This document shows, in pieces, positions 9,101 to 62,611 of a stretch of 64,000 nt of DNA (positions are counted from its first letter, which is position 1; each line of letters begins with the position of its first letter). This stretch comes from Cliona cf. orientalis (lineage: Eukaryota; Porifera; Demospongiae; Clionaida; Clionaidae). A program made the translations under genes and the position numbers. Location: NCBI GenBank assembly GCA_963930775.1, contig OZ005694.1, positions 2,418,001-2,482,000 of the forward strand, given 5' to 3'. The notes under the pieces were generated by a model. The model had not been told where the DNA came from. It did not search any database and saw nothing but the letters and a program-made list of their open reading frames with translations.

Positions 9101-12100
9101 AGATATAGGTAGAATATATATACATGTATGGCTGAGAACTTAACCACTTAATCAAGGTGGACTAACACAAACTTAAATGCAAGGAATTGTCTAAAAAGCA
9201 TTGAAATGTACTAAAAATCATACATTGCTAATCAAGTTACCAAAAGTTTCAAAAAAGTGACATGATTTTCTACAGCTAATGGAAACATATGCAGTGTTTA
9301 TTCTAATGGAACGCAAGCAAAAGCATTTTCAAATCTGGTTTGCACACAGTTAGAGTCAAAACAATTCCAGGAAGTGAATTTCTTCCATTAATTAGATGTT
9401 GCATTATAATGGAACAATAGCAGAGCTTTATGCAACGACCAATAGCAGCTATTGATGGTATCGTACCAGTGACCCTAGCCCCAATCATTATGAGGGTAGC
9501 TTGAAAAAGGCCCTCTGACAGCCGTAGTCGGCGATGCCACATAGTCGCGATCATAGCCTCGGAGTCCTGCTGCTGGACTTAGCAAAGTCCGGTTTCCAAC
9601 TAGGGTCAGTCCCGAGTGTTAGTAACCCTCATGAACGACAAACGACGCTTGCGATTTGGTTAGCAACGAGTCTGGTGAGAGACATATTGAGATCGAAGCT
9701 TCCAGAACATGCAGAACAGTTTAATACTTAGCAGAAGGTGTGATTTTAATGTGCTGCACACAGTTTAAGCATGCGCAAAAAGCATCATGATAGCACTATT
9801 GCGCTAATTGGATTCATAGAAAATAATTACAGGCAGTGGCTTCTGTTCATATAGTAGAGATTTCAGACTATCAGTGTTATGTCATGTTTTTATACCAGAA
9901 ATATTCCTTAATGCATCAGGATTATTGCCGTGCAAGAATCAGCTCGGTATCTCTTTCCTATGTGGTGCCATGATATTTAAGATTAAAGCCATTGACGTCC
10001 TGATTTTATAGTACGGAGAATTGCCATTGTATAAATGGCACCGTAGTGAATTATAGACCTCTACAACAAACAAATACCTGCAAATTGTATTCTTAAGTTC
10101 ATATCTGTTTGGACAAGTGATAATTGGATGTCTGTTTGGACAAGTGATAATTGGATGCAAAAGTGCATATGAAACAATCCTACCTTAGTATTGAATGCAA
10201 TTAATTGGATTTTCAATTGTCCAGAGAAATGAGACTGAAGCTAGGTTACCATGGAGTCCTTGTATTTAAAGTGCATGACAGTATAAACCATGGCCTGTAT
10301 CGATTTTACACAAGCCACTCAACCCTATTAGTGGACGTGGGTGTGGTTATTCAACAATAGAGTGCATATAGCATCTGCAAAGAACCTAAATCAGGTGCAT
10401 ATAGCTACTATGATATTAAGCCATCTGCGCCAATCCGCTGGATCTTTTTTAACAGTTATGGGATTCAAAATTCAACTTTTCAATTCTAGCATCCATTCCA
10501 ATCGGTAACACGCCTGTACTCAACGTAGTTTGGCTGTTAGATTACCAAATAATTTTCAGTTAGAAGGACTTCAGATTCGAGCTTAGCACCTCAGAAGTTG
10601 CCTAGGAAGCATCTATTCGTCTCTATCTGGTCACTTATCATCACAAGAAACCAGTAAGCAACCGTGCTGTACGTGGTGCCACGCTCGCAGTGTATTTTTC
10701 CATACACGCCTACTCTCATATTATGTTTCGTATGGGGATTTTCACGAGGGAAAATTTGATGTGTGCTATCTCCAATTATAAAACTACTTGATCAAAACTT
10801 CTTGAACGAAGTTCACCAGAAGCCTATAGGAGATAGTAGGATAGAGTTTTTTGTGAAAAGTGATAGTTGTCATTCCACGTTTTTGTTTTTTTTTTTTTTT
10901 TTTTTTTTTTTTACGCGAAAATAATATTAATATTATTAAGAGCACATGAAATAGCATAATAACAGCTAGTAAGTGCATGATAAAGATAATTATGATTAAT
11001 ACTATATACATACATACTTAGAATGTGTGGGAGGATGCAAAAAGCCTTAAAGAACGTTTAAAAGAATAAAAGGATGTACAACTTACAATATGATCAGGCA
11101 AACCATTCCACAATGAAGTAACGTGGGGCACAAATGAGTAAAAAAAGGAATTAGTCCTAGCGAAAGGTCTATGGATAAGTAGAGATGATCTAGAGCGGGT
11201 CTGCATGATATGGTCAAAGGATCTGAAGTGGATAATGTTACCTTGGAAAACAAAAAGCTTATTTATGATTTTGTACAGTGTACATAATTTTAAAAAGGCC
11301 CTCCTGTTTCTGAGTGATGGTAAATCAGCTTGCTGAAGTAAGGTATCCGAGTCAGAATGCCAGTCTTTGAGACATATTCTTAGCGCAAATCTCTGGACCC
11401 TCTCGAGAAGTACAATATCTTTTATCAGGTGGGGATCCCAAACTGAGGAGCAATACTCTAAAATTGGTCTGACTGTGGACAAGTAGAGCTTAAGCAAAGC
11501 TGGAGTTGCCAAGTGTTTATAGAATTTTCGGTAGACGAGGCCTGCGACCTTCCTGGCTTTAGAAGAGATTTTGCTAATATGTTTGGACCAGGATAGATCA
11601 GATGTGATCGTGACGCCGAGATATTTCATTTCAGAGACTTGATCAATGGGTGTACTTTCAATAAGAATTGGAGGAAAAGTTTGCACGAGACTGAATCTTT
11701 TACGTGTCACCACCATGTATTTGCATTTCGCTGGATTGATGCTCAAATGTCGGTGCTTGAGCCATACTGACACAGTATTGATGTCGGACTGGTATTGTTG
11801 GTAGTCGGTCACGGAGTGGATGGGTTTGTATAACAAAATATCATCTGCATACAGCATCATCCTTGTTCCAGCAGAGAGCTTCAGATCCTGAATAGAATTT
11901 ATATACAGCAGAAATAGGAGAGGTCCAAGAACCGAACCCTGGGGAACACCAGAGAGGACGACACTTTCATGGGATGTGCACCCATTTACAACCACCCTTT
12001 GCTTTCTATCTGTAAGGTATGAGACTAGCCACTTCAGTACACTGCTAGGTAGTCCAAGATTACTTAGAACTTCCATTAATTGACGATGTGGTACAGAATC

Positions 12101-14749
12101 AAAAGCTTTGCGTAGATCCAGAAAAGTAGCACATACTTCCGTGGAATTTTCAAGATGGAGATGCCAATCATGAATGGTAGATAACAAGGCAAGTGAGGTG
12201 TTAAATCGCTAGGTCCGAAATCTCTACTAATAAAATACAAACAATTCCTGGAATAGAATTTTCTTGTGGTAATTGGATCATGTGTTCTACCTTAAGGTAA
12301 CTAATTTTTGCGGGTACTAACGTTTGATATTTCTGCGGCTTTGCACAAAATCGCAAAATTTTGTACACGCAAACATTAGTTATTGTGCGCGGAATCGGTA
12401 AGGGATCGACAGCACGGCATCAACCAACTATCGACCCCGTACCGATTCCGCATGTGAATCGCAAATTTTAGTACACGCAAAACGCAGTTTAATCTCAATC
12501 CACAGAAAAATGTACCTGCAAAAAATAGTTACCTTAAGGTATTAGCATAAACACGGTAGTGGCTAATTTCAAGATTTGGGGGCTATAAGTCAACATTTGT
12601 GGGTCAGCCCACTCTGATTCTCAGCTCTTCGAATTTATTATTGATCACTTAAGCCCCACTTACACGTAGGGCTTAACTCGGGTCAGGATCCGCGTTAAAC
12701 TAACTCGCTTATGTGTAAACGCGCTAATCCACTTGTAAACCGAATTAGTTGACCCGGGTTGTAACCCACATCCTGATGTGGGTTAGAAGTGGGTTACGTG
12801 CATAGTAGTGGGCTATGAATATCTTGACTCGGGTCAAGCGCGTGCGTGTAAACGCGATTTAATCCGGTTCAGTTTAAACTGGTTTGGTACGTGTAAACGG
12901 GGCTTTAGTCTACTGTAACAGTTACTATAGTAATCATCATAAAAGGCGCACAATCGTAGCTATACACTGAACTGCATGACAATGATAATCATATATTGCA
13001 TACTGAATTTGTTCAGGGGAGGGGCACTTTAACCTTGGGGAGTATTATTAATTCATAGACGTCGGAAGCATCTTGAACGTGAGGGGGCAAAAGTAGTGTA
13101 ACAGTGCACGCGTAAAATTTTAAATGGAAATGGAAAACGACTCAGTAACTTTGTGAACTGCACTGAATTTAGCTAGCAAAAGTAGCTAGCAAGGACGACT
13201 GAGGTAGTGGTGAAAGCATGCGCAATTCAGTTTCTAGTCACAAAGTTCATATAGACAGGAAAACTCAGCTTCTTGTATGCCATAGCTAGGCTAAAAGTGG
13301 GTGTGACCAGTCATGAAAAGTGGGGGGACCATGACCCCCTCCCCCGACCTCCTCAGGGCGCGATGCCTATGTAGTTGATTTGTCCCCTTATTATAGAGTT
13401 CCTGACCATTCAGTATGAGGTTCCCCCTTTCTGTTTTGAATTTTGGCTCTCCCAAGTACCGTGTTTATTCTAATAGCTAACTTATACTTTTGCACAATTT
13501 TCTGGTAAAGGTCGTCACTCGGGACTACATTATATCACTAGAAATTTCATGTATAAGAAATGTATATGAAATCATACATTACAGAGCCGAATTTCATGAA
13601 TATTGCCTGACACATACTCTGTAATCAAGAGTATATACTCTTGCTGTAATGTACTGTTTCCTACATATTTCCTTACATTTTTCTTACACTATAAGGCCAT
13701 ATAAAATAACTTACTTGATTCTCATCCACCTTTTTCCAAAACATTTTTTTACTCATCAGGACACTAGAAAGAGCAATATCTGGAGCATATTTTCGAGATA
13801 TTTGGTAAAGGGTCGCTACTTCGCACGCGCGATAGCAATAGAATTCATAGGGGCGGCCTATAAAAATTGGGACGGGCGGGGATGAGAATCAAGTAAGTTA
13901 TTTTATATGGCCTAACGTTACTATATCTTATGTTTTACCATAAACACAGTTCAGTCGAGCCTCCGAACAAAGGACACTTTGGGAACGGGCCTCTTGTCCT
14001 TTGCTCGGAGGTTGTCCCTATCTCGGAGATTCATGATTTTTCAACCCATTTTGATTGTATTATCCTTAACAAGTTAGTAAATGCACTGAAATCCATAATA
14101 GAGATGATAATCAAGTTGTTGGTATGTTCTGTTTTCAGTATCAACATAGCACAGGCTGAATTTTTATTTCTGAAGTATTGGCTACTCCAAAATCGTTATC
14201 TGGATTCAAGGCTAATATTATTATCGCGCATGCAGCATAATATCGCGACCGCCTAGATTGCGACAAAGGTGGGCGTGGCATCGTTAATTTAAGGGCGTGG
14301 TTTCCGGATGTCTGCTATTTAGAGGCAGTTTTGCATTGAAAAGTCACGTTGGGAGCTTGGATCTTGTCCGCTGTCCGGAATCGAGAAGCGTCCGCTTCTC
14401 GGAGGTTGCTAATGTACTATAACTATGCTAAATTTAATCGGTAACACGGCACTTGTCCGCTGTAGAGGGGTTGTCCGCTTCTTGGAGGGTCCGTTATCAG
14501 AGGCTCGACTGTATTCTGCTTTCAAAACTGCATGCTTTTGAAAAATATTTGATATTATGGTGTTTCATCACGTTAAGGTACTCCTTCATGCATCAGTGCT
14601 GGTCAGGGGAGCCTGAACATCGACCATCGTTCTCTCAGCTGGTTGAATCTCTCTCAAGCTCACTGGAGGCAATGGCTGGATATGTGCACATTGGAGCCTT
14701 TGGAGTTAGAAGTCAGAGTGTGTGTGACTCAGAAGATGCTCATCATTAG
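130..14749 (+). CDS. Receptor tyrosine kinase, 5'-incomplete, 12 exons
   Basis: Exons read from splice sites and phase: 130-273, 1027-1176, 2871-3087, 3154-3304, 3463-3494, 3568-3681, 3765-3851, 7025-7245, 8322-8434, 8498-8663, 8902-9044, 14578-14749. Every junction keeps frame. Exon 1 needs one base from an exon left of the window. Exons 1-3 are ectodomain (paired Cys in ARECCVNS and CHTCIV, N-glycosylation sites). Exon 4 encodes a membrane helix ([19 protein letters not shown]) followed by basic residues. Kinase motifs in order: [11 protein letters not shown] glycine loop, YLAIKTLK lysine, a Glu in the helix-C region (MLKECSRM), [12 protein letters not shown] catalytic loop, [11 protein letters not shown], one activation-loop Tyr before [30 protein letters not shown], and [13 protein letters not shown]. 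The HRDLAAR form marks a tyrosine kinase. All catalytic residues are present, so it is probably active. The tail after the kinase is only about 25 residues. Known role of the family: ligand-driven phosphorylation of cytoplasmic targets. The ligand is unknown. The ectodomain is like those I associate with sponge kinase expansions (from memory). Confidence 0.93.
333..899. mobile_element. MITE with TIRs, hosting a LINE tail, in first visible kinase intron
   Basis: The left end (TTGGTAGGGAATTGAATTTG, then GCAGTTTGGC) matches the reverse complement of the right end at about 870-899 (GCCAAATTTAATTCCCACCAA). The TGCCAAATTTAA motif recurs at 37390-37509, so this is a dispersed family. A LINE fragment sits inside it. 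Superfamily not assigned. Confidence 0.6.
447..707 (+). pseudogene. C-terminal tail of a LINE reverse-transcriptase ORF
   Basis: The 86-residue frame contains LYKIINKL near its start and [20 protein letters not shown] further on. These match the end of the longer LINE ORF at 11018-12187 ([27 protein letters not shown]). This is the extreme C-terminus only, with no catalytic motif, so it is a dead, heavily truncated copy. It has the same orientation as the host gene. Confidence 0.7.
2122..2807. mobile_element. Tc1/mariner-like MITE, copy 1
   Basis: Ends are CTCAGTGTTGTTAAGGACTG and the reverse complement of CAGTCCTTAAGTGCACTGAG. The internal stretch (cgtgacgta, acaagccacgg) is shared with the element at 4730-5397. 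The right end lies about 60 bp before kinase exon 2871-3087. A 113-codon frame inside (2205-2546) has no recognisable domain and is probably not coding. Confidence 0.75.
3945..4494. repeat. Dispersed ~550-bp repeat with AACCCTAGGC ends
   Basis: Begins AACCCTAGGC and ends GCCTAGGGTT (short TIR). Near the left end it has GCGCATGCGTGAGGGTTACG and a (TCTG)n tract. Related copies lie at 60795-61365 and 62055-62405, and a partial one at about 56019. It lies in the intron between exons 3765-3851 and 7025-7245. Confidence 0.65.
4730..5397. mobile_element. Tc1/mariner-like MITE, copy 2, with TA duplication
   Basis: TIRs of about 25 bp beginning CTCAGTGCAGTTAAGG on both sides, flanked by TA at 4728-4729 and 5398-5399. 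It is 668 bp, with internal similarity to 2122-2807. No transposase frame. TA targets plus this TIR form fit the Tc1/mariner group (inference). Confidence 0.8.
5400..6527. other. Kinase intron tract, no gene seen
   Basis: Within the 3852-7024 intron. It contains a GC-richer patch at about 6020-6320 with repeated gctcgaggag and gctagc motifs. Neither strand shows a coding signature I recognise. Confidence 0.5.
6528..6902. mobile_element. Small foldback element with 111-bp arms
   Basis: 6528-6638 and 6792-6902 are near-perfect reverse complements (left begins CAAGTATAAAAACAATTG; right ends CAATTGTGTTTATACTTG) around a ~153-bp loop. It lies 120 bp upstream of kinase exon 7025-7245. Confidence 0.85.
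7246..8321. other. Kinase intron, no gene seen
   Basis: Ordinary AT-rich intron sequence between exons 7025-7245 and 8322-8434. I see no domain, RNA gene or clear TIR pair in it. Confidence 0.5.
9045..10883. other. Left part of last kinase intron
   Basis: The 5.5-kb last intron begins here. A GC-richer patch at 9480-9730 resembles the interior of the 4730 MITE in style (gtcgcgatcatagcctcgg against gtcgcagttttagcctcga), but no matching TIRs were found. A 20-bp direct repeat (tgtttggacaagtgataatt) occurs at about 10107 and 10133. No gene recognised. Confidence 0.4.
10884..12210 (-). mobile_element. 5'-truncated non-LTR retrotransposon (LINE)
   Basis: Antisense to the kinase gene. On the minus strand: an RT ORF, about 100 bp of 3' UTR, then a poly(A) run (plus-strand T run at about 10884-10912). 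The ORF begins abruptly at an in-frame stop near 12209, and no endonuclease or N-terminal RT sequence lies upstream. That is typical 5' truncation. No clear target duplication seen. Confidence 0.85.
11018..12187 (-). CDS. LINE reverse transcriptase, partial ORF
   Basis: An uninterrupted 389-codon frame. The first codon is TTG and the frame runs back to a stop about 20 bp upstream, so the true start is missing. RT palm motifs: [17 protein letters not shown] (residues ~22-37); [21 protein letters not shown] (~77-96); [10 protein letters not shown] (~110-118). The C-terminal thumb/tail carries [14 protein letters not shown] and LWNGLP. The role of the intact protein is target-primed reverse transcription. 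The fingers region and endonuclease are absent, so this copy cannot move itself. The intact frame suggests it is fairly young. The CR1/Jockey-like tail is the closest family I can suggest. The fragment at 447-707 is a relative. Confidence 0.93.
   Translation of the reverse strand: MLSTIHDWHLHLENSTEVCATFLDLRKAFDSVPHRQLMEVLSNLGLPSSVLKWLVSYLTDRKQRVVVNGCTSHESVVLSGVPQGSVLGPLLFLLYINSIQDLKLSAGTRMMLYADDILLYKPIHSVTDYQQYQSDINTVSVWLKHRHLSINPAKCKYMVVTRKRFSLVQTFPPILIESTPIDQVSEMKYLGVTITSDLSWSKHISKISSKARKVAGLVYRKFYKHLATPALLKLYLSTVRPILEYCSSVWDPHLIKDIVLLERVQRFALRICLKDWHSDSDTLLQQADLPSLRNRRAFLKLCTLYKIINKLFVFQGNIIHFRSFDHIMQTRSRSSLLIHRPFARTNSFFYSFVPHVTSLWNGLPDHIVSCTSFYSFKRSLRLFASSHTF
12292..12537. mobile_element. 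TTAA-flanked MITE (piggyBac-like)
   Basis: TTAA at 12292-12295 and 12534-12537 bracket a 238-bp element. Its TIRs begin GGTAACTAATTTTTGC (left) and GGTAACTATTTTTTGC (right, complemented). A second internal inverted pair (cggaatcggta / taccgattccg) gives a hairpin. TTAA target plus TIR fits piggyBac or Kolobok non-autonomous elements. Confidence 0.75.
12651..12905. mobile_element. Palindromic MITE with AAGCCCC ends
   Basis: The left end AAGCCCCACTTACACGTA pairs with the right end TACGTGTAAACGGGGCTT. The interior is also rich in inverted copies (acccgggtt, gtgtaaacgcg). Target duplication not resolved. Confidence 0.6.
13692..13915. mobile_element. TAA-flanked MITE (PIF/Harbinger-like), copy 1
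   Basis: TAA at 13692-13694 and 13913-13915 flank TIRs starting GGCCATATAAAATAACTTAC, continuing to GATTCTCATCC. A sister copy is at 43620-43890. A 3-bp TAA target fits PIF/Harbinger. Confidence 0.75.
13952..14511. mobile_element. CAGTCGAGCC MITE, copy 1 (pogo/Tc1-like)
   Basis: TIR CAGTCGAGCCTCCGA at the left and its complement at the right, with TA at 14512-14513. The interior is made of short inverted tracts (gcggacaa / ttgtccgc). The copy at 31911-32698 is the same element in the opposite orientation. It ends 66 bp before the last kinase exon. Confidence 0.8.
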
Positions 14750-15145: not shown

Positions 15146-15985
15146 TGTGCAAAGTGGTACACAGAGACTTGGCAGCTAGGAATTGTATGTATGTTAATAA
15201 TAATGTATAGACAAAGCTTAAATTGATTCACCTCAGGGTTTCGTTTAGAAATTTCGGTTTGGGGTGGAAGTGGGTGTGGCAGCTCCACGCACCATATTGC
15301 ACCATACCTCCTTTACCATTAATTTACATTAAATTCCATACCATAATGACACTGAGGTGTTATGGATTTTATTCTGAGATATTCAGCAAGTCTCGAAGTG
15401 ATCAAGTATATATCGTAGTACCAAAAACATATACACACCTCCTCCTCTTCCTCTCTCTCTCTCTCCTTTTCTCTATCTTTCCCTTTCCCTTTGGGGGGAA
15501 GTTCCCCCCCCCCCCCCCCCCCCCCCCCCACCGGATGAAACCCAGCCTGCACCTATAAACTGACATGCATTGTATCCTTACTCAAGAATCAACACTCATT
15601 TTACGATCAAGGTTGTTGACTTAAATTGAAGGCTCAGAACCATGCATGCCGAGTGGCCTAACTCACAAAAGTTGAGTTAGCCACCCTAATCTTGAAAACA
15701 TCATTACAAAGTGTTATGGAAAATTCACATTTCTGAAGCAATTAAGTTTTGTTAGAGTATATATAGAGTGCATGATTTTTAGTCAATTTTTGGGCATTTT
15801 AGATAATTCCCCACATTCAGTTTATGGTCAGGCCACTCTGCTTCAATTGGATTCACTGAAAGTGTTACAGTGGTAGAATATTTATACCAAGATAGCTGAA
15901 AGCTTCTGTCAGGCTGCCATTGAAATGATTACCACCTGAAAGCATAAATTACTATCTTTCAGACAAATCAGACGTTATAAGTGTC
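15146..15985 (+). pseudogene. Decayed tyrosine-kinase fragment (duplicate of upstream gene)
   Basis: Three pieces match consecutive exons of the upstream kinase. 15154-15190 reads [12 protein letters not shown] followed by a GTATGT donor. About 15600-15632 reads IKVVD, with a stop where FGL should follow. About 15838-15983 is a decayed version of the activation-loop and APE exon: RLPLK, a TGA where Trp belongs, LPPESI, then SDKSDV. The GT donor after SDKSDV is mutated to AT. The first and second pieces are separated by a (CT)n tract and 26 C. No counterpart of the following exon was seen. Inference: a tandem partial duplication, now dead. Confidence 0.8.
15434..15529. repeat. Pyrimidine tract: (CT)n then 26 C
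   Basis: cctcctcctcttcctctctctct followed by ccctttcccttt and a run of C at 15504-15529. It interrupts the kinase pseudogene. Confidence 0.85.
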
Positions 15986-18619: not shown

Positions 18620-18760
18620 AGGTCCTTCACAAATTTATAATACCTCCAATATGTGAACATTGTGAACACGGTGGCATCCATCCTTCACAAAAATTATAAT
18701 ACTTTTAATGTGTGAACACTGTGAACACGGTGGCATCCATCGTTCACAAAAACTATAATA
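18620..18760 (+). repeat. 59-bp satellite, left remnant (2-3 units)
   Basis: Units of the form ttcacaaaaattataatac, ttctaatgtgtgaacattgtg, aacacggtggcatccatcc. The last unit is cut at 'ctataata' by the large inverted element, and the array resumes in the same orientation at 29689. Confidence 0.85.
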
Positions 18761-18829
18761 AACAGTATCCATAAGATCCGGAATATTTTTTTCCGGATTC
18801 TGTAAAAATTTACACTTTAAAGAACCGAG

Positions 18830-19735
18830 GGTAGCTTAGGATCTAAGCCACCCTCGGCTTAGGATCTAAGCCAACCTCCGCTTAGCTTAGAATCTAAGCC
18901 AGTACCATCAGCTTAGGATCTAAGCCACCCTCGGCTTAGGATCTAAGCCAGTACCATCAGCTTAGGATCTAAGCCACGCTCCGCTTAGGATCTAAGCCAC
19001 CCTCCGCTTAGGATCTAAGCCAACCTGCGCTTAATTAGCTTAGAATCTAAGCCAGTACCATCAGCTTAGGATCTAAGCCAACCTCCGCTTAGCTTAGAAT
19101 CTAAGCCAGTACCATCAGCTTAGGATCTAAGCCAACCTCCGCTTAGCTTAGAATCTAAGCCAGTACCATCAGCTTAGAATCTAAGCCACCCTCCGCTTAG
19201 GATCTAAGCCAACCTCTGCTTAGGATCTAAGCCACTCTCCGCTTAGCCATTTTCAGCTTAGAATCTAAGCCAGTGCCATCAGCTTAGGATCTAAGCCACC
19301 CTCGGCTTAGGATCTAAGCCAACCTCCGCTTAGCTTAGAATCTAAGCCAGTACCATCAGCTTAGGATCTAAGTCACCCTCCGCTTAGGATCTAAGCCACT
19401 CTCAATCCGCTTAGCCATTTTCAGCTTAGAATCTAAGCCAGTGCCATCAGCTTAGGATCTAAGCCACCCTCAGCATAGAATCTAAGCCAACCTCTGCTTA
19501 GAATTAAATCATGATTGGCTTAGATCCTAAGCAGAGGGTAACTTAGATCCTATTTATGGCGCTGGCTTGATGGTGGCTTAGATCCTAAGCCGAGGTTGGC
19601 TTAGATCCTAAGCTGATGGCTCTGGCTTAGATTTTAAGCTCAGAATAGCGCTACATGTAAGTGGAGAGTGGCTCAGATCCTTTGAGTAGGAATTACAGCT
19701 TAGGATCTAAGCCACCACTGATGTTGGCACAATAG
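18830..19735. repeat. Left subterminal array of GGCTTAG..CTAAGCC hairpin units
   Basis: About thirty copies of gcttaggatctaagcc (7-bp stem, 3-nt loop) separated by short spacers such as accctcg, accatca and aacctccg. Inverted counterpart at 28640-29625. Confidence 0.9.
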
Positions 19736-20029
19736 CTTACCTTATAAGCCACAAACTACTTGAGCATAACCACTTTGCCTACTTGAGATACAAGCCACGT
19801 GGTCAGCAGCTCACCACCAAGACCATTAAACTATTATTATTCGTGTTTGTGAGACAATTTTGTCACAAATCATCTTGTTTCAATCCATTTTTTTTGTTCA
19901 TTTGCATTTATTATGATAATATTAAATATTTTCAAGTTATGTTGTATTAAACATACACATATTTTGGTACATTTTAATAATTAAATCCCCTTTCTTGAAA
20001 TCAGTCCAGTACAGCTAGTACACACCTTG

Positions 20030-23000
20030 TTATGGTAACTTTTTGGTCTCATTTATACACCCAACACTTTCTAGGTACCAAAATTAGACCAGTACCTTTG
20101 TTTTTGTGTCTATATTCATAATTTAGAGTGGTGTAAACAGTAGACATGGCATTGGTGACTTCTGTGTCTGTGTATTCTAAATTTCTATGTACGTACATAT
20201 ACGTACATTCACAGTAATCGGTACAATTTTTATAGCTTTTTAGCCCTCAATTCTTCACACATGATCTCTGAAGTTCCAAACTTGAACAGTACCTTTGTCT
20301 TGATGTTAACAATCATAATTCTAAGTTTCATTGACTGGTGATGTGGTTGAAGCATGTTCTGCACATGCAAGTATGAGAATTCGTGTGCACATGTATGTAT
20401 TATTATTCGGTAAAATTTTCATAGTTTTTTAGCTCTCAATTCCACATACAACATCTCTGGAGTACCAGACTTGATCAGTACCTTTGTTCTTGTGTGTATA
20501 ACCATAATCTAGAGTGGTGTAAATAGTGGGTATGGTATTGGTGACTTCTGTGTGTGTGAGGATGAGCATTTGTGTACATACTTCATGTTTACTTAATCGA
20601 TACCGTACACATCTTGTAGCTTTCTTGGTCTCATTTGTACACCCTACTTTTTCTAGGTACTAAAATCAGATCAGTACATTTGTTTTTGTGTCTATATTCA
20701 TAATCTAGAGTGGTGTAAACAATGGACATGGTATTGGTGACTTCTGTGTGTGTGAGGATGAGCATTTTGCGTGTACTTCATGTTAATCGATACTGTACAC
20801 ATGCATCTCGTAGCTTTCTTGGCCTCATTTGTACACTCCACACTTTCTAAGTGCCAAGATCAGACCAGTACTTTTGTTCTTGTGTCTATATTCATAATCT
20901 AGAGTGGTGTAAACAGTGGACATGGTACTGGTGACTTCTTTGTATGTATTCTAAGAATTTACTATGCAATCATGCAGCTACATGTAGTACGTATACATAA
21001 TACACATTTCTTGCTTTTGAGCTCTAAATTCTTCACACGACATCCCAGAAGTTCCAAATTTGATCAGTAACTCTATCTCAATGTTAACAATCATATTTCT
21101 AAGTTTCGTCGACTGGCAATGTGGTTGAGGAATGTTCTGCATATGTGAGTATGAGAATATCCTGTGCATAGGCATTCACAGTAATGGGTGCAATTTTTAG
21201 AGGTTTTTAGCTCTCAATTCCACATGCAATATCTCTGGAGTACAAGACTTGATCAGTACATTTGCTCTTGTGTCTATAACCATAATATAGAGTGGTGTAA
21301 ACAGTAGACATGGTACATTAGTGACTTTTGAGTGTGTGAGGATGAGTATTTTGTGTGTACTTCATGTCAATCGGTACTGTGCATATCTTGTAGCTTTCTT
21401 GGTCTCGTTTGTACACTCCACACTTTCTAGGTACTAGAACCATACCAGTACAGTTGTTCTTGTGTCTATAACCTTAATCTAGAATGGTGTAAACAGTGGA
21501 CATGACATTGGTGACTTACTCTGCATGTGTATTCTAAGAATTTTCCATGACATTGTGTGTACACACATTCACAGTAACCAAAATACAACTGTAGCTTTTT
21601 AGCTCTTAATTCTTTCAACATCATCTCTAAACTTCAAACTTGAACAGTACCTTTGTCTTGATGTTAACAATCATACTTGTGAGTTTCGTTGACTCGCGAT
21701 GTGATTGAGGTATGTTCTGTACATGTGAGTATGAGAATATCCTAGTGTGCACATGCAATCATATTAATCGGTACAATTTTTATAGCTTTTTAGCTCTCAA
21801 TTCCACATACAACATCTCTGGAGTGTCAGACTTGATCAGTATCTTTATTTTGATGTCTTTTATCATAACCTAGAGTGGTGTAAACAGTAGGCATGGCATT
21901 GGTGACTTTTGAGTGTGTGAGGATGAACATTTTGTGTGTACTTCAAGTTAATCGATACTGTACACATCTTGTAGCTTTTTTGGTTTTATTTGTACACCCC
22001 ACACTTTCCAAGTATCAAAACCAGACCAGTACCTTTATTTTGATGTCTATATTCATAATCTAGAGTGGTGTAAACAGTGGACATGGTATTGGTGACTTCT
22101 GTGTGTGTGAGGATGAGCATTATTTTAGTGTGTACTTCATGTCAATTGATGCTGTACACATCTTCTCGCTTTTTTGGTCTAATTTGTACACCCCACACTT
22201 TCCTAGTATCAAAACCAGACCACTACCTTTATTTTGATGTCTATATTCATAATCTATAGTGGTGTAAACATTGGACATGGTATTGGTGATTTACTCTGCG
22301 TGTGTATTCTAAGTTTCCATATTATGTGCATACATCAGTATTTGGTACAATTTTCATAGCTTTTAAGCTCTATATTCTTCACACATCATCTCTGAAGTTC
22401 CAAATTTGATCAGCACCTTTGTCTTGATGTTAACAATCATATTTCTGAGTTTAGTCAACTGGCGATGTGGTTGAGGATTGTTTTGTACATCTGAGTATGA
22501 GAATATCTTGTGCACCTGCATGCATACATTCACAGTAATCGGTACTATTTTTATAGCACTTCAGCTCTAAAATCTTCATATAACATTCCTGAAGTTCCAA
22601 ACTTGGTGAGTACCATTGATTTGATGTTAATAATCATATTTCTGACTTTCGTTAACTAGCGATGTGGTTGAAGCATGTTATGCACATGTGAGTATGAGAA
22701 TTACCTATAGCACTGCATGCATGCATTCACAGTAATCGATGCAATTTTAGTAGCTTTTTAGCTCTCAATTCCACATACAACATCTCTGGAGTACCAGACT
22801 TGATCAGTACCTTTGTTCTTGTGTGTATAACCATAATCTAGGGTGGTGTAAACAGTGGACATGATATTGGTGACTTCTGTGTGTGTGAGGATGAGCATTT
22901 TGCGTGTACTTCCTATTAAACGGTACTGTACACATCTTGTAGCTCTCTAAGTCTCATTTGTACACCTCATACTTTCTAAGCATTAAAACCAGACCAGTAA

Positions 23001-23965
23001 CTTTTTTTGATGTCTATATTCATAATTTAGGGTGATGTAAACAGTAGACATTATATTGGTGACTTCTGTGTGTGTGAGGATGAGCATTTTGTGTGTACTT
23101 CATATTAATCGATACTATACACATCTTGTAGCTCTCTTGGTCTCATTTGTGCACCCCATACTTTTTAAGCATTTAAACCATACAAGTAACTTTGTTTTGA
23201 TGTCTATATTCATAATCTAGGGTGGTATAAACAGTAGACATTGTATTGGTTACTTCTGTGTGTGAGAGGATGAGCATTTTGTGTGTACTTCATATCAATC
23301 GATACTGCATGTACATGTACAAATCTTGTAGCTTTCTTATGGTCTCATTTGTACACCCCATACTTTTTAGGTACCAACGCAATACCAGCTGTATCTTTAT
23401 TCTTGTGTCTATATTCATAATCTAGAATGGTGTAAACAGTGGAAATGACATTGGTGACTTCTGTGTGTATGTATTCTAAGAATTTTCCATGTGTACACAC
23501 ATTCACAGTAATCCTACAATTATTTTTGTAGCTCTTTAGCTCTCAATTCTTCACACAACATCCCTGAAGTTCCAAACTTGATCAGTATCTTTATTTTAAT
23601 GTTAATCATCTTATTATTTCTGAGTTTCATTGACTGGCGATGTGGTTGAGGCATGTTCTGCACATGTGAGTATGAGAGTTTCCTGTACACATGCATTCAC
23701 AGTATAATTAGTACAATTTTTATAGCTTTTTAGGTGTCAGTTCCACATACAACATCTCTGGAGCACCAGACTTGATCAGTAACTTTGGTGTTATGTCTAT
23801 AACCATAGTCTAGAGTGGTGTAAACAGTAGACATGGCATTGGTGACTTCTGTGTGTGTGAGGATGAGTATTTTGTGTGTACTTCATATAATATTATTAAT
23901 CGGTACTGTACACATAATATTATCATTGTAGCTTTCTTAGTCTCATTTGTACACGCCACATTTTT
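20030..23965. repeat. Left internal array of degenerate ~190-bp repeats
   Basis: Two alternating unit types share a core (agtacctttg...tgatgt or gtgtctata). One type carries tagagtggtgtaaacagtgg and gtgacttctgtgtgtgtgag; the other carries gatgtggttgaggcatgttc. Copies are more diverged than in the right arm. Short frames occur on both strands but do not join. Confidence 0.85.
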
Positions 23966-24775
23966 ACTTTATACCGCTGTATGTGCTCACATGTTGTGCT
24001 AAATAGGCTGTGAGAGAGGATGTTTCCAATTAAGCTATGAAGTGCGTGCATGTGTGTGTGAGTGTGTTTGTGTGTGTGTGTGACATGAGTGGGTTTGGGT
24101 TTGGGTTGGGTTTGGGTTGGTTTTGGGTTAGGTTTGGGTTTGATTTAAGGTATGTACATGTACACACATACCTTACTTTCACACTCATATCATATGCATG
24201 TATATTACATGGCATGTGCTGTGCACATGCACATGTAATTCTGTCTATAGATACACTACATGTGTACATATACACATGTATACATATTTACATGATCATG
24301 TAAATGATCAATACCCTCTAATTAACACCTACATGTAACCAAAAGGTAGGCATACTAAGAAGTAAGTGATAGGGAAAATGAACCAGCCATAATAATAGCA
24401 TGTATGGTGGTACTGAGCTAGTGATTGGTAGTAGTTTTCCTCTGTGCAGTACTTCATAATTCCACAGAGCATATGCCCCTCTTAATACTATGATTATGAT
24501 ATTGTGGTCACCACAGGTACACATTGATGCACACACATGGTGTAGTTCAAGTGAAGTACACACTAGTAAAACCACATAATGTATAGATGCTCAATCACAA
24601 TAGTGTATGATCTAACGCTGGACCTACCATATTATATGATATTATTATAATACACGTATTATAATTTAAGGTTCAAAGATTTATTAATTTGATTTTGAGT
24701 TGTATGAGGTTGCTTGTGTTTCCTATCATGTAACATACTGACAAAAAAATTCTCCATTGATTAGAATTCTCATAC
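23966..24775. other. Unpaired core of the foldback, with a TTTGGG tract
   Basis: Sequence between the mirrored arrays and not obviously inverted. Contains (TG)n at about 24045-24082, then gtttgggtttgggttgggtt and related G-triplet runs at 24090-24143, then ATGTACA-rich palindromic sequence. No gene recognised. Confidence 0.7.
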
Positions 24776-24779
24776 ATAA

Positions 24780-27700
24780 ACCATCTTTCCTTTTGACTAC
24801 TGTTTACACCACTTTAGATTATGAATACAGACATAAAAACAAAGGTACTGGTCTGGTTTTGGTACCTAGAAAGTATGGGGTGTACAAATTAGACCAAAAA
24901 AGCTACAAGATGTGTACAGTATCGATTGACATGAAGTACACACTAAATGCTCATCCTCACACACACAGAAGTCACCAATACCATGTCCACTGTTTACACC
25001 ACTCTAGATTATGGTTATAGACATCAAAATAAAGATACTGATCAAGTCTGGCACTCCAGAGATGTATGTGGAATTGAGAGCTAAAAAGCTATAAAAATTG
25101 TACCGAGTACCGTGAATGCATGTAAACAGGATATTCTCATACTCAGATGTACAGAACAATCCTCAACCACATCGCCAGTTGACGAAACTCAGAAATATGA
25201 TGTTTAACATTAAGATAAAGGTACTGTTCAAGTTTGGAAATTTATAGATGATATATGAAGAATTAAGAGCTAAAAAGCTATGAAGGTTGTATCTTGGTTA
25301 CTGTGAAAGTGTGTACACACATGGAAAATTCTTAGAATACACACGCAGAGTAAGTCACCAATGTCATGTCCACTGTTTACACCATTCAAGATTAAGGTTA
25401 TAGACACAAGAACAAAGGTACTGATCAAGTCTGGCACTCCAGAGATGTTGTATGTGGAATTGAGAGCTAAAAAGCTACTAAAATTGCATCGATTGCTGTG
25501 AATGCATGCATGTGCTATAGGTAATTCTCATACTCACATGTGCATAACATGCTTCAACCACATCGCTAGTTAACGAAAGTCAGAAATATGATTATTAACA
25601 TCAAATCAATGGTACTCACCAAGTTTGGAACTTCAGGGATGTTATATTAAGATATTAGAGCTGAAATGCTGTGAAAATCGGACCTATTACTGTGAATGCA
25701 TGCAGGTACACAGGAAATTCTCATACTCATATGTACAGAACATGCCTCAACCACATCGCCAGATGACGAAACTCAGAAATATGATTTTTAACATCAAGAC
25801 AAAGGTGCTGATCAAATTTGGAACTTCAGAGATGATGTGTGAAGATCTTAGAGCTTATAAGCTATGAAAATTGTACCAAATACTGATGTATGCACATAAT
25901 ATGGAAACTTAGAATACACACACACAGAAATCACCAATACCATTTCCACTGTTTACACCACTATAGATTATGAATATAGACATCAAAATAAAGGTACTGG
26001 TCTGGTTTTGATACTAGGAAAGTGTGGGGTGTACAAATTTGACCAAAAAACCTACAAGATGTGTACGGTATCGATTGACATGAAGTACACACAAAATGCT
26101 CATCCTCACACACACAGAAGTCACCAATACCATGTCCAATGTTTACACTACTATAGATTATAAATATAGACATCAAAATAAAGGTAGTGATCTGGTTTTG
26201 ATACTTGGAAAGTGTGGGGTGTACAAATAAAACCAAAAAAGCTACAAGATGTGTACAGCATCGATTGACATGAAGTACACACTAAAAATTAATAATGCTC
26301 ATCCTCACACACACAGAAGTCACCAATACCATGTCCACTGTTTACACCACTATAGATTATGAATATAGACATCAAAATAAAGGTACTGGTCTGGTTTTGA
26401 TACTAGGAAAGTGTGGGGTATACAAATTTGACCAAAAAAGCTACAAGATGTGTACGGCATCGATTGACATGAAGTACACACTAAAATAATGCTCATCCTC
26501 ACAAACACAGAAGTCACCAATACCATGTCCACTGTTTACACCACTCTAGATTATGGTTATAGACATCAAAATAAAGATACTGGTCTAGTTTTGATACTAG
26601 GAAAGTGTGGGGTGTACAAGTTTGACCATAAAAGCTACAAGATGTGTACGGCATCGATTGACATGAAGTACACACAAAATGCTCATCCTCACACACACAG
26701 AAGTCACCAATACCATGTCCAATGTTTACACCACTATAGATTATGAATATAGACATCAAAATAAAGGTACTGGTCTGGTTTTGATACTAGGAAAGTGTGG
26801 GGTGTACAAATTTGACCAAAAAAGCTACAAGATGTGTACGGCATCGATTGACATGAAGTACACACTAAAATAATGCTCATCCTCACAAACACAGAAGTCA
26901 CCAATACCATGTCCACTGTTTACACCACTCTAGATTATGGTTATAGACATCAAAATAAAGATACTGGTCTGGTTTTGATACTAGGAAAGTGTGGGGTGTA
27001 CAAATTTGACCATAAAAGCTACAAGATGTGTACGGCATCGATTGACGTGAAGTACACACTAAAATAATGCTCATCGATCCTCACAAACACAGAAGTCACC
27101 AATACCATGTCCAATGTTTACACCACTCTAGATTATGGTTATAGACATCAAAATAAAGATACTGGTCTGGTTTTGATACTAGGAAAGTGTGGGGTGTACA
27201 AATTTGACCATAAAAGCTACAAGATGTGTACGGCATCGATTGACATGAAGTACACACAAAATGCTCATCCTCACACACACAGAAGTCACCAATACCATGT
27301 CCAATGTTTACACCACTATAGATTATGAATATAGACATCAAAATAAAGGTACTGGTCTAGTTTTGATACTTGGAAAGTGTGGGGTGTACAAATAAAACCA
27401 AAAAAGCTACTAGATGTGTACAGTATCGATTAACTTGAAGTACACACAAAATGTTCATCCTCACACACTCAAAAGTCACCAATGCCATGCCTACTGTTTA
27501 CACCACTCTAGGTTATGATAAAAGACATCAAAATAAAGATACTGATCAAGTCTGGCACTCCAGAGATGTAGTATGTGAAATTGAGAGCTAAAAAGCTATA
27601 ATAATTGTACCGATTACTGTGAATGCATGTGCACAAGATATTCTCAGACTCACATGCACAGAACATGCCTCAACCACATCGCCAGTCAATATAACTCAGA

Positions 27701-28195
27701 AGTATGATTGCTAACATCAAGATAAGGGTGCTGATCAAGTTTGGAACTTAAGGGATGCTATGTGAAGAATTGAGAGCTAAAATGCTTCGAAATGTGTACT
27801 ATGTATACATGTAGATGATTGCATGGAAAATTCTCAGAATGCACACACGCAGAAGTCACCAATACCATGTCCACTGTTTACACCACTCTAGATTATGGCT
27901 ATAGACACAAGAACAAATGTACTCTTATAATTTTGGTGCCTGGAAAGTGTGCGGTGTACAAATGAGACCAAAAAGCTACAAGATGTGTACAGTACCGATT
28001 AATATGAAATGCACACAAAATGCTCATCCTCATACACACAGAAGTCACCAATGCCATGCCTACTGTTTACACCACTCTAGACTATGGTTATAGACACAAG
28101 AACAAATGTACTGGTATGGGTTTGGTACCTAAAAAGTGTGGGGTGTACAAATGAGACCAAGAATGCTGCAAGATGTGTACTATACCGAAATGGTT
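24780..28195. repeat. Right internal array of ~190-bp repeats (inverted to left)
   Basis: Near-identical 190-194-bp units run from about 26100 to 27470 (starts of the atgctcatcctcac motif at about 26295, 26489, 26679, 26873, 27067). They are flanked by more diverged units of both types. The homogeneous block implies recent local amplification. Confidence 0.88.
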
Positions 28196-28639
28196 ACACT
28201 CAAAATCCTCATCTATATGTGTACATTGAACAGATTTAATAAGCACTGGATTTATTCCTAGTTATTGATTACCATCATTCAACACACTAAATCTTGCAAG
28301 TTTTAATATTATTATGGTAGTTATCATAATTGTCCCCTATTGTATCATCATGCATTGCCAATTGACTGATTTCAAGAAAAGGGATTTTATTAAAATTCAC
28401 CAAAATAGGTGTATGTTCATAACATAACTTGAAAATACATTATAGTAAATGCAAATGAACAAAAAAATCCCTGCATAGAAGTCAACAGCATACAATGTAA
28501 CAATAGTGCTCAGGTACACTGAGGTACATACTTTAATTAATGGTCTTGGTGATGAGCTGCTGACCACATCACGTGGTTTGTATCTCAAGTAGGCTAGTGG
28601 TTATGCTCAAGTAGTTTGTGGCTTAATTATAAGGCACGC

Positions 28640-29625
28640 TATTGTGCCAACATTGGGGGTGACTTAGATCCTCAGCTGTAATTCCCAAGTCATGATTGGC
28701 TTAGACCCTAAGCTGATGGAACTGGCTTAAATGCTAAGCTGAGAATGGCTTAGATCCTAAGCTGAGGTTGTCTTAGATACTAGTGGCTTAGATCCTAAGC
28801 AGCTGAGGTTGGCTTAGATTCTAAGCCAAGGTTGTCTTAGATATTAGTGGCTTAGATCCTAAGCAGCTGAGGTTGGCTTAGATTCTAAACCAAGGTTGTC
28901 TTAGATACTAGTGGCTTAGATCCTAAGTGGAGGGTGGCTTAGATACTAGTGGCTTAGATCCTAAGCTGATGGTACTGGCTAAGCTAAGCGGAGGTTGGCT
29001 TAGATCCTAAGCTGATGGCACTGGCTTAGATTCTAAGCTAAGCGGATGTTGGCTTAGATCCTAAGCTGATGGTACTGGCTAAGCTAAGCGGAGGTTGGCT
29101 TAGATCCTAAGCTGATGGTACTGGCTTAGATTCTAAGCTAAGCGGAGGTTGGCTTAGATCCTAAGCGGAGGGTGGCTTAGATTCTAAGCGGAGGGTGGCT
29201 TAGATTCTAAACTGATGGTACTGGCTAAGCTAAGCGGAGGTTGGCTTAGATCCTAAGCGGAGGGTGGCTTAGATTCTAAGCGGAGGGTGGCTTAGATCCT
29301 AAGCTGATGGTACTGGCTAAGCTAAGCGGAGGTTGGCTTAGATCCTAAGCTGATGGCACTGGCTTAGATTCTAAGCTAAGCGGAGGTTGGCTTAGATCCT
29401 AAGCTGATGGCACTGGCTTAGATTCTAAGCTAAGCGGAGGTTGGCTTAGATCCTAAGCGGAGGGTGGCTTAGATCCTAAGCTGATGGCACTGGCTTAGAT
29501 TCTAAGCTAAGCGGAGGTTGGCTTAGATCCTAAGCTGATGGCACTGGCTTAGATTCTAAGCTAAGCGGAGGTTGGCTTAGATCCTAAGCCGAGGGTGGCT
29601 TAGATCCTAAGCTACCCTCGGTTCA
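28640..29625. repeat. Right subterminal array of hairpin units
   Basis: ggcttagatcctaagc units with a higher-order spacer pattern (tgatggcactggcttagatt, ctaagctaagcggaggtt). Inverted relative to 18830-19735 and more regular. Confidence 0.9.
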
Positions 29626-29688
29626 TTAAAGTGTAAATTTTTACAGAATCCGGAAAAAAAATATTCCGGATCTTAAATGGATACTGTT

Positions 29689-30870
29689 AATACTTCTAAT
29701 GTGTGAACACGGTGGCATCTATCCTTCACAAAAATTATAATACTTCTAATGTGTGAACATTCTGAACACAGTGGCATTCATCCTTCACAAAAATTTCTAA
29801 TAATTATGTGAACATTGTGAACGCAGTGGCATCCATCCTTCACATAAATTATAATACTTATATTATGTGAACATTGTGAACACGGTGCATGGCATCCATC
29901 CTTCACAAAAATTATAATACTTCTAATGTGTGAACATTGTGAACACGGTGGCATCCATCCTTCACAAAAATTATAATACTTCTAATGTGTGAACATTGTG
30001 AACACAGTGGCATTCATCCTTCACAAAAATTTCTAATAATTATGTGAACATTGTGAACACAGTGGCATCCATCCTTCACATAAATTATAATAATTCTAAT
30101 ATTATATTATGTGAACATTGTGAACACGGTGGCATCTATCCTTCACAAAAATTATAATATATACTTCTAATGTGTGAACATTGTGAACATGGTGGCATCC
30201 ATCCTTCACAAAAATTATAATACTTCTAATGTGTGAACATTGTGAACACGGTGGCATCCATCCTTCACAAAAATTATAATACTTCTAAATAAATATGCTC
30301 ATGAACATTGTGAACACGGTGGCATCCATCCTTCACAAAAATTATAATACTTCTAATGTGTGAACATTGTGAACACGGTGGCATCCATCCTTCACAAAAA
30401 TTATAATACTTATAATGTGTGAACATTGTGAACACGGTGGCATCCATCCTTCACAAAAATTATAATACTTCTAATATATTCATGAACATTGTGAACACGG
30501 TGGCATCCATGGTTCCTTCACAAAAATTATAATACTTATAATGTGTGAACATTGTGAACACGGTGGCATCCATCCTTCACGAAAATTATAATACTTCTAA
30601 TATATTCATGAACATTGTGAACACGGTGGCATCTATCCTTCACAAAAATTATAATACTTCTAATGTGTGAACATTGTGAACACGGTGGCATCCATCCTTC
30701 ACAAAAATTATAATACTCCTAATGTGTGAACATTGTGAACACGGTGGCATCCATCCTTCACAAAAATTATAATACTTCTAATATATTCATGAACATTGTG
30801 AACACGGTGGCATCCATCCTTCATAAAAATTATAATACTCTTCTAATATGTGAACATTGTTAACCAAAAT
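29689..30870 (+). repeat. 59-bp satellite array, ~19 units
   Basis: Unit: acttctaatgtgtgaacatt, gtgaacacggtggcatccat, ccttcacaaaaattataat. Each unit has a TTCACA..TGTGAA inverted pair. Some units have an AT-rich insertion or lose part of the start. Same orientation as the fragment at 18620-18760. Confidence 0.95.
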
Positions 30871-31908: not shown

Positions 31909-31910
31909 TA

Positions 31911-32357
31911 CAGTCGAGCCTCCGATAACGGACCCTCCGAGAAGCGGACAACCTCTCTACAGCGGACAAGTGCCGTGTTACCGATTGGATTTAGCATAGT
32001 TATAGTACATTAGCAACCTCCGAGAAGCGGACGCTTCTCGATTCCGGACAGCGGACAAGATCCAAGCTCCCAACGTGACTTTTCAATGCAAAACTGCCTC
32101 TAAATAGCGGACATCCGGAAACCACGCCCTTAAATTAACGATGCCACGCCCACCTTTGCCGCAATTCAAAGTTCAATCCTAATAATTATTGCACATACTT
32201 CTTCTCATGTCCTTGCCCTAGGTGTTTTTCCCATCCAAAGTCATGCTTCTCTATATAAATTATTCATCAAGCTTAATTCTATGTATCATTTATTATTGTT
32301 TTTGTCAGGCTGTTACAGTATTCTTTGTATAGCAGGCCTTCAGCTCAGCTGTAAAGT

Positions 32358-32393
<36 letters not shown>

Positions 32394-32698
32394 CTAGGCG
32401 ATCGCGATATTGTGCCGCATGCGCGATAATAATATTAGCCTTGAATCCAGATAACGATTTGGAGTAGCCAGTACTTCAGAAACAAAAAAATTCAGTCTGT
32501 GCTATGTTGATACTGAAGACTGAACATACCAACCACTTGATTATCATCTCTACTGCTCTTATCATGCATTTACTAACTTGTTAAGGATAATACAATCAAA
32601 ATGGGTTGAGAAATCATGAACCTCCGAGATAGGGACAACCTCCGAACAAAGGACAAGAGGCCCGTTCCCAAAGTGTCCTTTGTTCGGAGGCTCGACTG
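31911..32698. mobile_element. CAGTCGAGCC MITE, copy 2, with nested insertion
   Basis: TIRs CAGTCGAGCCTCCGA with TA on both sides (31909-31910, 32699-32700). Inverted relative to 13952-14511. It is longer because about 226 bp (about 32166-32391) interrupts it; that insert ends in (ATA)n. Confidence 0.85.
32166..32391 (+). mobile_element. SINE- or LINE-like insertion with (ATA)n tail
   Basis: Absent from the sister MITE at the matching point (cctttgtcgcaatctagg). It begins after 'cgcaat' and ends with about ten ATA units before 'ctagg'. A trinucleotide 3' tail suggests a non-LTR or SINE origin. No RNA polymerase III boxes were confirmed. Confidence 0.5.
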
Positions 32699-32713
32699 TA
32701 TACTGCTAACCTG

Positions 32714-34355: not shown

Positions 34356-35372
34356 TTAAGGTAGCATTAAAGTGCGTGGGCGTGAGCGTCAGGATTGGCT
34401 AATTCAATTAGCGAATCGTGAAGGGGCGTGGCCGAAGAGGCCATACGAGTGCTTTTGGTCGAAGGTGGGCGTGTCTAGAATCGGCCAGGGATGATTATGC
34501 GCGTGTAATTAGCGACCGGAAGTGGCCCCTGAAGAAAACACCGGTAATTGCCCACTTCAAAGCAAGATCAAAGCATTCTTTCTTAACTATTAACAGCAAC
34601 GACAAAAAAAAAAAAAAAAAAAAAGCCTTATTAGGCCTAATTAAGCATGTGGGCGTGTTCCTGGCACTGTGTGGAGTGTGTGCGTGTGCGTTAATGCAGG
34701 TTTTATTGCTTCCGATTGGGCGTGGCTTCACGGGCCAGTGCTTGGATATCGGCGCCTGGGACTTGGCCTCGGCGATAGGTGGGCGTGTCCCGGAAGCGGT
34801 GGTGACCTTTGAACCCCGCGAGGAGGCTTTGGGGGCGTGGCAGGAGGTCAAAGGTGAGGCCATGTCTGTTAATGAGGCACTGTACGCCGGTGCGATGGAG
34901 GGGACCGTACGGCTGGACGGAAGCTGACGATGGTTTGAAGCGGATGTGGTTGCGATGACGTGTTGTTACTCCGCCCACACAGGAAATGAGGTGAGCTCTT
35001 GCGTGGGCGGTGTGGCAGAACGGCCTCCAAGTGTTTGTGCGTGTTTTGGCCTTGAGGAAGCTGTGTGTTTTAATTGGGATTGATTGTGGGCTTCCGGTGG
35101 ACATCCGGTGGTTAGTAGGCACTTGATTGAGAATGGTGGTCCTTGGGGAACAGGGTGGGGCTGTTTTGGGCGTGGCCTGGCCCCTCCCTTCCGGCTCGGC
35201 TTCCGGTCCATGGAGGATATTAAATGAACACTTCCGGCTCTAGCAGCCACACCCCTGAGACCTGTGCAATTAAAAGGGCGTGGTTACACAACATGCACCT
35301 CACTAATGACTTTGATGTGGTTTAGGTGTCATATCCCCCATCTCACGCCCACGCACTTTAATGCTACCTTAA
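34356..35372. mobile_element. TTAA MITE family T, copy 1 (1.0 kb)
   Basis: TTAA at 34356-34359 and 35369-35372 flank TIRs beginning GGTAGCATTAAAGTGCGTGG, identical on both ends through GGCGTGAG. Nearly identical to 56335-57340. The main difference is an A run (about 20 A at 34605-34624 against about 10). Frames of 90-170 codons exist on both strands because the sequence is GC-rich, but none shows a domain. TTAA targeting fits piggyBac or Kolobok. Confidence 0.88.

Positions 35373-62571: not shown

Positions 62572-62611
<40 letters not shown>
62572..62611. repeat. Run of 40 G
   Basis: Follows 'aggcgtcggaacc', a hAT-like end motif, and precedes 'gatgccccc'. The exact length may be affected by sequencing or assembly. 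Confidence 0.95.

What the first reader, a model, noticed from the sequence alone, without database searches (positions are those of the whole stretch)
18761..29688. Giant non-coding foldback element inserted in a satellite
A 10.9-kb segment reads as one large inverted repeat: terminal repeats, hairpin-unit arrays, unique spacers and internal repeat arrays all recur in mirror order about a centre near 24225. The surrounding 59-bp satellite has the same orientation on both sides, and AATA is doubled at the junctions, so it inserted as a unit. It has no visible transposase, which makes it a non-autonomous foldback far larger than ordinary MITEs. If transcribed across the centre it would give a ~5-kb hairpin RNA.
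Basis: partly seen in the sequence, partly recalled or inferred. Interest (0 to 1): 0.9.

Follow-up and report, generated by a model that had tools for sequence, protein, structure and literature searches.

The report
Giant foldback transposon, one of many
A 10.9-kb mirror-image stretch of DNA turns out to be one of a young family of unusually large jumping elements scattered through this animal genome, most likely moved by a little-studied enzyme that rare longer copies still carry.

Summary
Window 18761-29688 is one mirror-symmetric element inserted in a 59-bp satellite with a 4-bp AATA duplication. It belongs to a family: the host assembly has 62 recognisable ends. All 19 convergent pairs (7.7-32.9 kb) have matching 4-bp target duplications, of 17 different sequences. 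One arm segment is 99-100% identical in 11 of 12 copies probed, but the two arms of the window copy are only about 82-86% alike outside the terminus. So the foldback is ancestral, the spread recent, and an assembly join excluded. Each arm begins with a shared terminus, then GCTTAGnnnCTAAGC palindromes, then about 190-bp repeats.

The window copy is non-coding. A RAG1/Chapaev-like transposase inside one copy first looked like the partner, but is a separate nested element: eight copies keep its empty site. A better candidate is a head-to-head gene pair at the centre of another copy: an intact DUF7869 gene, whose family has a DDE-transposase-like core, and a companion gene. A second, diverged copy shares one arm-gene border, and the window's centre resembles the gene's flank. 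I read it as a giant non-autonomous foldback DNA transposon, mobilised in trans. The transposase assignment is inferred, not shown.

The parts
18623..18756 (+). 59-bp satellite, left flank
   Evidence: same consensus as right flank
18757..18760 (.). target-site duplication AATA, left copy
18761..18832 (+). terminal inverted repeat core AACAGTATCC..., with an inner palindrome ATCCGGAA...TTCCGGAT at 18776-18798
   Evidence: 98.6% to the right end
18834..19712 (+). array of GCTTAGnnnCTAAGC palindromes (27 perfect), left
19713..20034 (+). arm spacer, left; most of it (19800-20030) 99.1-100% identical in 11 of 12 copies probed
20035..23960 (+). array of about 190-bp repeats, left (outer limits approximate)
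23961..24798 (.). unique centre, shared (either orientation) by 10 of 13 copies examined
24166..24345 (-). stretch of the centre that resembles the flank of the DUF7869 gene of the C7 copy (c4 7120-7325), 68%, E 6e-12
24412..24415 (.). ACTG: empty site at which the C5 copy carries a nested Chapaev element
24799..28213 (-). array of about 190-bp repeats, right (limits approximate)
28214..28690 (-). arm spacer, right
28699..29612 (-). array of GCTTAGnnnCTAAGC palindromes (27 perfect), right
29614..29688 (-). terminal inverted repeat core, right
29689..29692 (.). target-site duplication AATA, right copy
29693..30864 (+). 59-bp satellite, right flank

Best explanation
The segment is one copy of a family of giant foldback DNA transposons that insert by cut-and-paste with a 4-bp target duplication. 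The window copy is non-autonomous. It is mobilised in trans by a DDE transposase that recognises the conserved terminus and probably also the palindrome arrays of the arms. The best candidate is the DUF7869 protein, encoded with a companion gene head-to-head in the centre of rarer gene-bearing copies. The window type arose from such an element by loss of the gene pair, keeping the arms and a remnant of the gene flank, and then multiplied. SHOWN: family, termini, target duplications, satellite site restored when one duplication is removed, recent spread with older arm divergence, gene pair at the arm-to-arm transition in one copy and its right border in a second, integrase-like core in the model of a DUF7869 relative. 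INFERRED: cut-and-paste as such, that this protein acts on these ends, that the palindromes are binding sites, and the origin by internal deletion.
Confidence: 0.58

Rival explanations
1. Foldback transposon family as above, but moved by a transposase not identified here; the DUF7869 pair is an old passenger in one subfamily.
For: Only two copies with the module or part of it were found; the family carries other passengers, a nested Chapaev in the C5 copy and a RAG1-core-like frame in the C9 copy.
Against: The module replaces the centre instead of interrupting one arm, shows no exact nested ends, shares its border with a second locus, and has a possible trace in the window type's centre.
Confidence: 0.28
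2. A Chapaev transposase (RAG1-like N-terminal domain, RING, DDE) is the partner, and the window type is a Chapaev with its gene deleted. This was my own first reading.
For: The C5 copy holds an intact 10-exon, 968-aa gene model with RAG1 importin-binding and DUF1280 matches; Chapaev has 3-4 bp duplications (PMC4079192, passages).
Against: The gene lies in its own CACGGGTG...CACCCGTG element with ACTG duplicated at its borders; W, c10, s10, n9 and c2, c3, c6, c8 (sequences) hold the empty site. Ordinary 4.5-kb Chapaevs with such ends and 4-bp duplications occur elsewhere in the genome. The foldback's ends are AACAG...CTGTT, not CAC...GTG.
Confidence: 0.1
3. Segmental inverted duplication or an assembly join.
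For: Long inverted repeats are prone to both (general knowledge).
Against: Arms differ by 14-18% outside the terminus; precise ends, target duplications in 19 of 19 pairs; 62 ends on many contigs.
Confidence: 0.01
4. The element's main present role is as a source of hairpin RNA that feeds small-RNA silencing.
For: Anatomy only: imperfect pairing over about 3.5 kb of each arm.
Against: No transcript or small-RNA data; conserved ends and target duplications are explained by transposition alone.
Confidence: 0.03

Closest known systems
Foldback elements: FB and Tetris (Drosophila), Tm1 (root-knot nematodes)
   Same: Long terminal inverted repeats with internal tandem repeats, non-coding copies, and for Tetris a tie to satellite arrays (PMC4079207, passages).
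   Different: Tetris has 8-10 bp target duplications and is put with Mutator by its authors. Here 4 bp, copies of 7.7-32.9 kb, palindrome arrays as well as 190-bp repeats. Tm1 was seen only in search listings and as a mention, FB only as mentions in other papers.
Galileo (P superfamily)
   Same: Foldback-like; long, internally repetitive arms; most copies non-autonomous (PMC2775673, passages).
   Different: 7-bp duplications, arms up to 1.2 kb, non-autonomous mean 953 bp. Some Galileo copies have arms over 99% alike within a copy; here the arms of the window copy are about 82-86% alike outside the terminus.
Chapaev / CMC transposons
   Same: 4-bp target duplication; a Chapaev sits nested in one copy.
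   Different: Ends are not CAC...GTG; the Chapaev is a separate insertion.
Sola superfamily
   Same: 4-bp target duplications, and a DNC..NKN-like motif (both recalled, not from a call). A bivalve survey gives Sola1 a mean of 5445 bp (PMC10294476, passages).
   Different: No Sola reference protein was available to compare, and the 2009 description was not held. Relationship open.
Proteins with Pfam domain DUF7869 (PF25273)
   Same: The candidate transposase belongs here; relatives in mussels, oysters, sea urchins, lancelets and others, and eukprot entries Em0757g1a and Em0010g956a that I take to be Ephydatia muelleri.
   Different: Those of the 120 listed relatives that bear a name are called uncharacterised, hypothetical or DUF7869 proteins, one 'ATP binding'; no PDB relative by sequence; 0 papers in the held library contain DUF7869.

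Membership tests
Foldback transposon (structural class) | Long terminal inverted repeats with internal tandem repeats | tested here: met
Foldback transposon (structural class) | Target-site duplication and dispersed copies | tested here: met
   19 of 19 pairs
Mutator superfamily foldbacks | 8-11 bp target duplication (Tetris 8-10 bp; upper limit recalled) | tested here: not met
   4 bp in 19 of 19 pairs
P superfamily (Galileo) | 7-8 bp target duplication (Galileo 7 bp; 8 recalled) | tested here: not met
   4 bp in 19 of 19 pairs
Chapaev | 3-4 bp target duplication | tested here: met
Chapaev | Ends 5'-CAC...GTG-3' | tested here: not met
   AACAG...CTGTT at the ends; true Chapaevs of the same genome have CAC
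Chapaev | Own Chapaev transposase | tested here: not met
   the full one found in this family is nested, with its own ends and ACTG duplication; a distant RAG1-core-like frame in the C9 copy was not resolved
Sola | 4-bp target duplication (recalled for Sola1/2) | tested here: met
   19 of 19 pairs
Sola | Sola-type transposase | not tested
   no reference sequence at hand; 2009 paper not held
DDE transposase (DUF7869 protein) | RNase H-like core with D, D, E at the end of strand 1, end of strand 4 and in the following helix | tested here: met
   on a homologue (P0005, Saccostrea echinata); Foldseek alone was weak. The C7 protein itself was not folded; it has the same three motifs
DDE transposase (DUF7869 protein) | Acts on the ends of this element | not testable with these tools
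   needs binding or cleavage assays
MITE | Short, usually under about 0.8 kb (recalled) | tested here: not met
   paired copies are 7.7-32.9 kb

The most novel reading that the evidence does not exclude
DUF7869 plus its head-to-head companion gene (ParB-like by an IGGNHSR motif, my reading) is an undescribed two-gene superfamily of animal DNA transposons. In this host one branch has grown arms of about 5 kb made of palindrome arrays and 190-bp repeats, which act as multiplied transposase-binding sites, and has given rise to a wave of 10-kb non-coding parasites of itself.
Probability: 0.35. Interest if true: 0.75.

Novelty: new variant of a known kind. Interest (0 to 1): 0.56.

Why it matters
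Most foldbacks have been put with Mutator, and Tetris has no known transposase (passages); Galileo belongs to P. This family has exact ends, target duplications, young copies and candidate gene-bearing relatives in one genome. It gives a direct way to ask whether arm repeats are multiplied transposase-binding sites. It also suggests a role for a protein family, DUF7869, that occurs in many animals without a known function. The long inverted arms are expected to promote rearrangement, as proposed for Galileo.

Tried and rejected
Rejected: that the window type is a gene-deleted Chapaev. I held this, because four copies shared one junction with the C5 copy. One search showed CACGGGTG...CACCCGTG ends and a doubled ACTG at that junction, so the shared junction is an empty site. 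One copy, c1, has a small deletion over that site.

Rejected: that the DUF7869 pair inside the 32.9-kb element supports the model; 3.2 kb next to it show no similarity to three family copies. Its CATG target duplication is palindromic and its flanks look inverted, so it is the weakest of the 19.

Not explained: of 24 unpaired ends (pairing by nearness, my own count), 12 match perfectly, and 11 of these 12 are left ends (+ strand). Over all 24 it is 17 left and 7 right.

One search used hits typed in from the tables, and an assumed length for contig C11. and one search scored only about 8000 best candidates each, so their hit numbers are lower bounds.

Full report
OBSERVATION. The window's minus-strand self-comparison shows a strong anti-diagonal over 18.76-29.69 kb. 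Read directly, the element runs from AACAGTATCC at 18761 to GGATACTGTT at 29688, flanked by AATA on both sides. The order is: terminal core; array of GCTTAGnnnCTAAGC palindromes about every 23-28 bp; spacer; about 190-bp repeats; unique centre; then the same in mirror order. The palindrome occurs 54 times in the window, 27 in each arm and nowhere else; with one mismatch 61 times, 0.09 expected. Mirror identity is 98.6% in the terminal 72 bp, 82.2% in the palindrome zone and 82.1% in the spacer; a shuffled control run for the spacer averages 46%. The collinear pairing covers 3538 of 5200 left-arm and 3495 of 4898 right-arm bases. The 59-bp satellite is in the same orientation on both sides, and the flanks joined with one AATA align through the junction to the satellite array.

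FAMILY. The window lies in an assembly of 216.8 Mb in 149 contigs. A 27-base terminal pattern with up to 3 mismatches has 61 matches, and none for the reversed control; the window's left end, which carries a small deletion, makes 62. They form 19 convergent pairs, 7.7 to 32.9 kb apart. Every pair has a matching 4-bp target duplication: 11, 7 and 1 (CATG, palindromic, weaker); the 19 show 17 different sequences. Twenty-four ends are unpaired. Thirteen copies were read wholly or in part: W, c1-c10, s10 and the middle of the C9 copy, n9. A 230-base piece of one arm spacer was found in 11 of 12 copies probed (not in c4) and is 99.1-100% identical between them. The centre of W, c7, c10 and s10 is 98.2-99.4% identical; n9 stands at 95.8-96.3% against these four and c1, with a rearranged centre, at 85-89%. 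Since the arms within the window copy are far less alike, the foldback predates the spread, the spread is recent, and a misassembly is excluded. In the C7 copy the outer 3.3 kb of the arms are 94.8% alike, so subfamilies differ in this.

A WRONG TURN. The C5 copy (c7) has a gene model for a 968-aa protein in 10 exons with a RAG1-like N-terminal region and RING-like matches (PDB RAG1 E 4e-6; Pfam RAG1_imp_bd and DUF1280). Kapitonov and Koonin (PMC4411706, passages) describe Chapa and RING domains in Chapaev transposases. Four copies share the junction at which c7 has the gene, which looked like an internal deletion. The base-level view shows a separate Chapaev, CACGGGTG...CACCCGTG, with ACTG doubled at its borders. 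W, c10, s10 and n9 hold the empty site GGTACTGAGC, as do c2, c3, c6 and c8 in reverse (sequences printed); c1 has a small deletion there; c4, c5 and c9 lack this centre. Ordinary Chapaevs of about 4.5 kb with the same kind of ends and 4-bp duplications occur in this genome: two copies compared; a third, diverged one with CAC ends and inverted repeats of about 200 bp, where no target duplication was recognisable. The hallmark CAC...GTG (PMC4079192, passages) is not met by the foldback. It is not a Chapaev.

MECHANISM. Most likely a DDE transposase made by gene-bearing copies binds the shared terminus, and probably the arm palindromes, cuts the element out and inserts it with 4-bp staggered cuts. 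Non-coding copies with the same arms are moved in trans. The role of the palindromes is an inference by analogy: the Tetris paper reports that Galileo's internal arm repeats contain additional transposase-binding sites (PMC4079207, passage).

COMPARISON. Structurally it is a foldback. By target duplication it is neither Mutator nor P. Paired copies are eight or more times longer than the non-autonomous Galileo mean of 953 bp. No paper in the held library contains both foldback and Chapaev, and none contains DUF7869. Whether DUF7869 equals a Repbase superfamily such as Sola could not be tested; the 4-bp duplication would fit (recalled).

LIMITS. No expression, activity or population data. Only parts of the gene-bearing C1 copy and of the 32.9-kb element could be read.

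Noticed in passing
G000:C5:2180292-2183755 (c7 5824-9287): Intact-looking 10-exon Chapaev transposase gene with RAG1-like N-terminal and RING-like regions, nested in a foldback copy; a 39% relative in the sponge Ephydatia muelleri.
   Followed up: yes
L031:5445-7001 (-), C9 copy: 519-aa frame with a weak RAG1-core match (E 2.9e-4, below Pfam cut-off), 23% to the c7 transposase: another Transib/CMC-like transposase carried by a foldback copy.
   Followed up: partly
G000:C1, 16.2-34.1 Mb: 30 of 47 matches to the Chapaev N-terminal frame (several rows can be one gene) lie in this part of contig C1, although C1 is about 17% of the assembly: a graveyard of transposase genes or a special chromosome region.
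   Followed up: no
62 family ends: Of the 12 perfect ends without a partner, 11 are left ends; no explanation found.
   Followed up: no
window 13947-14513 and 31909-32705: Inverted copies of another repeat, 92-97% identical, lie on either side of the element and satellite.
   Followed up: no
window 34495-35239 and 56583-57207: Two direct copies of the same repeat with similar long frames, no Pfam match for one of them.
   Followed up: no
window 55461-55934 (-): Frame with a phage-integrase-type match (E 1.6e-6), perhaps a Crypton-like tyrosine recombinase.
   Followed up: no
window 11018-12208 (-): Reverse transcriptase frame, 396 aa, RVT_1 E 3.6e-30, probably a non-LTR element.
   Followed up: no
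window 53454-53953; 62572-62611; 15504-15529: 167-bp tandem repeat of 3 copies, a run of 40 G and a run of 26 C.
   Followed up: no
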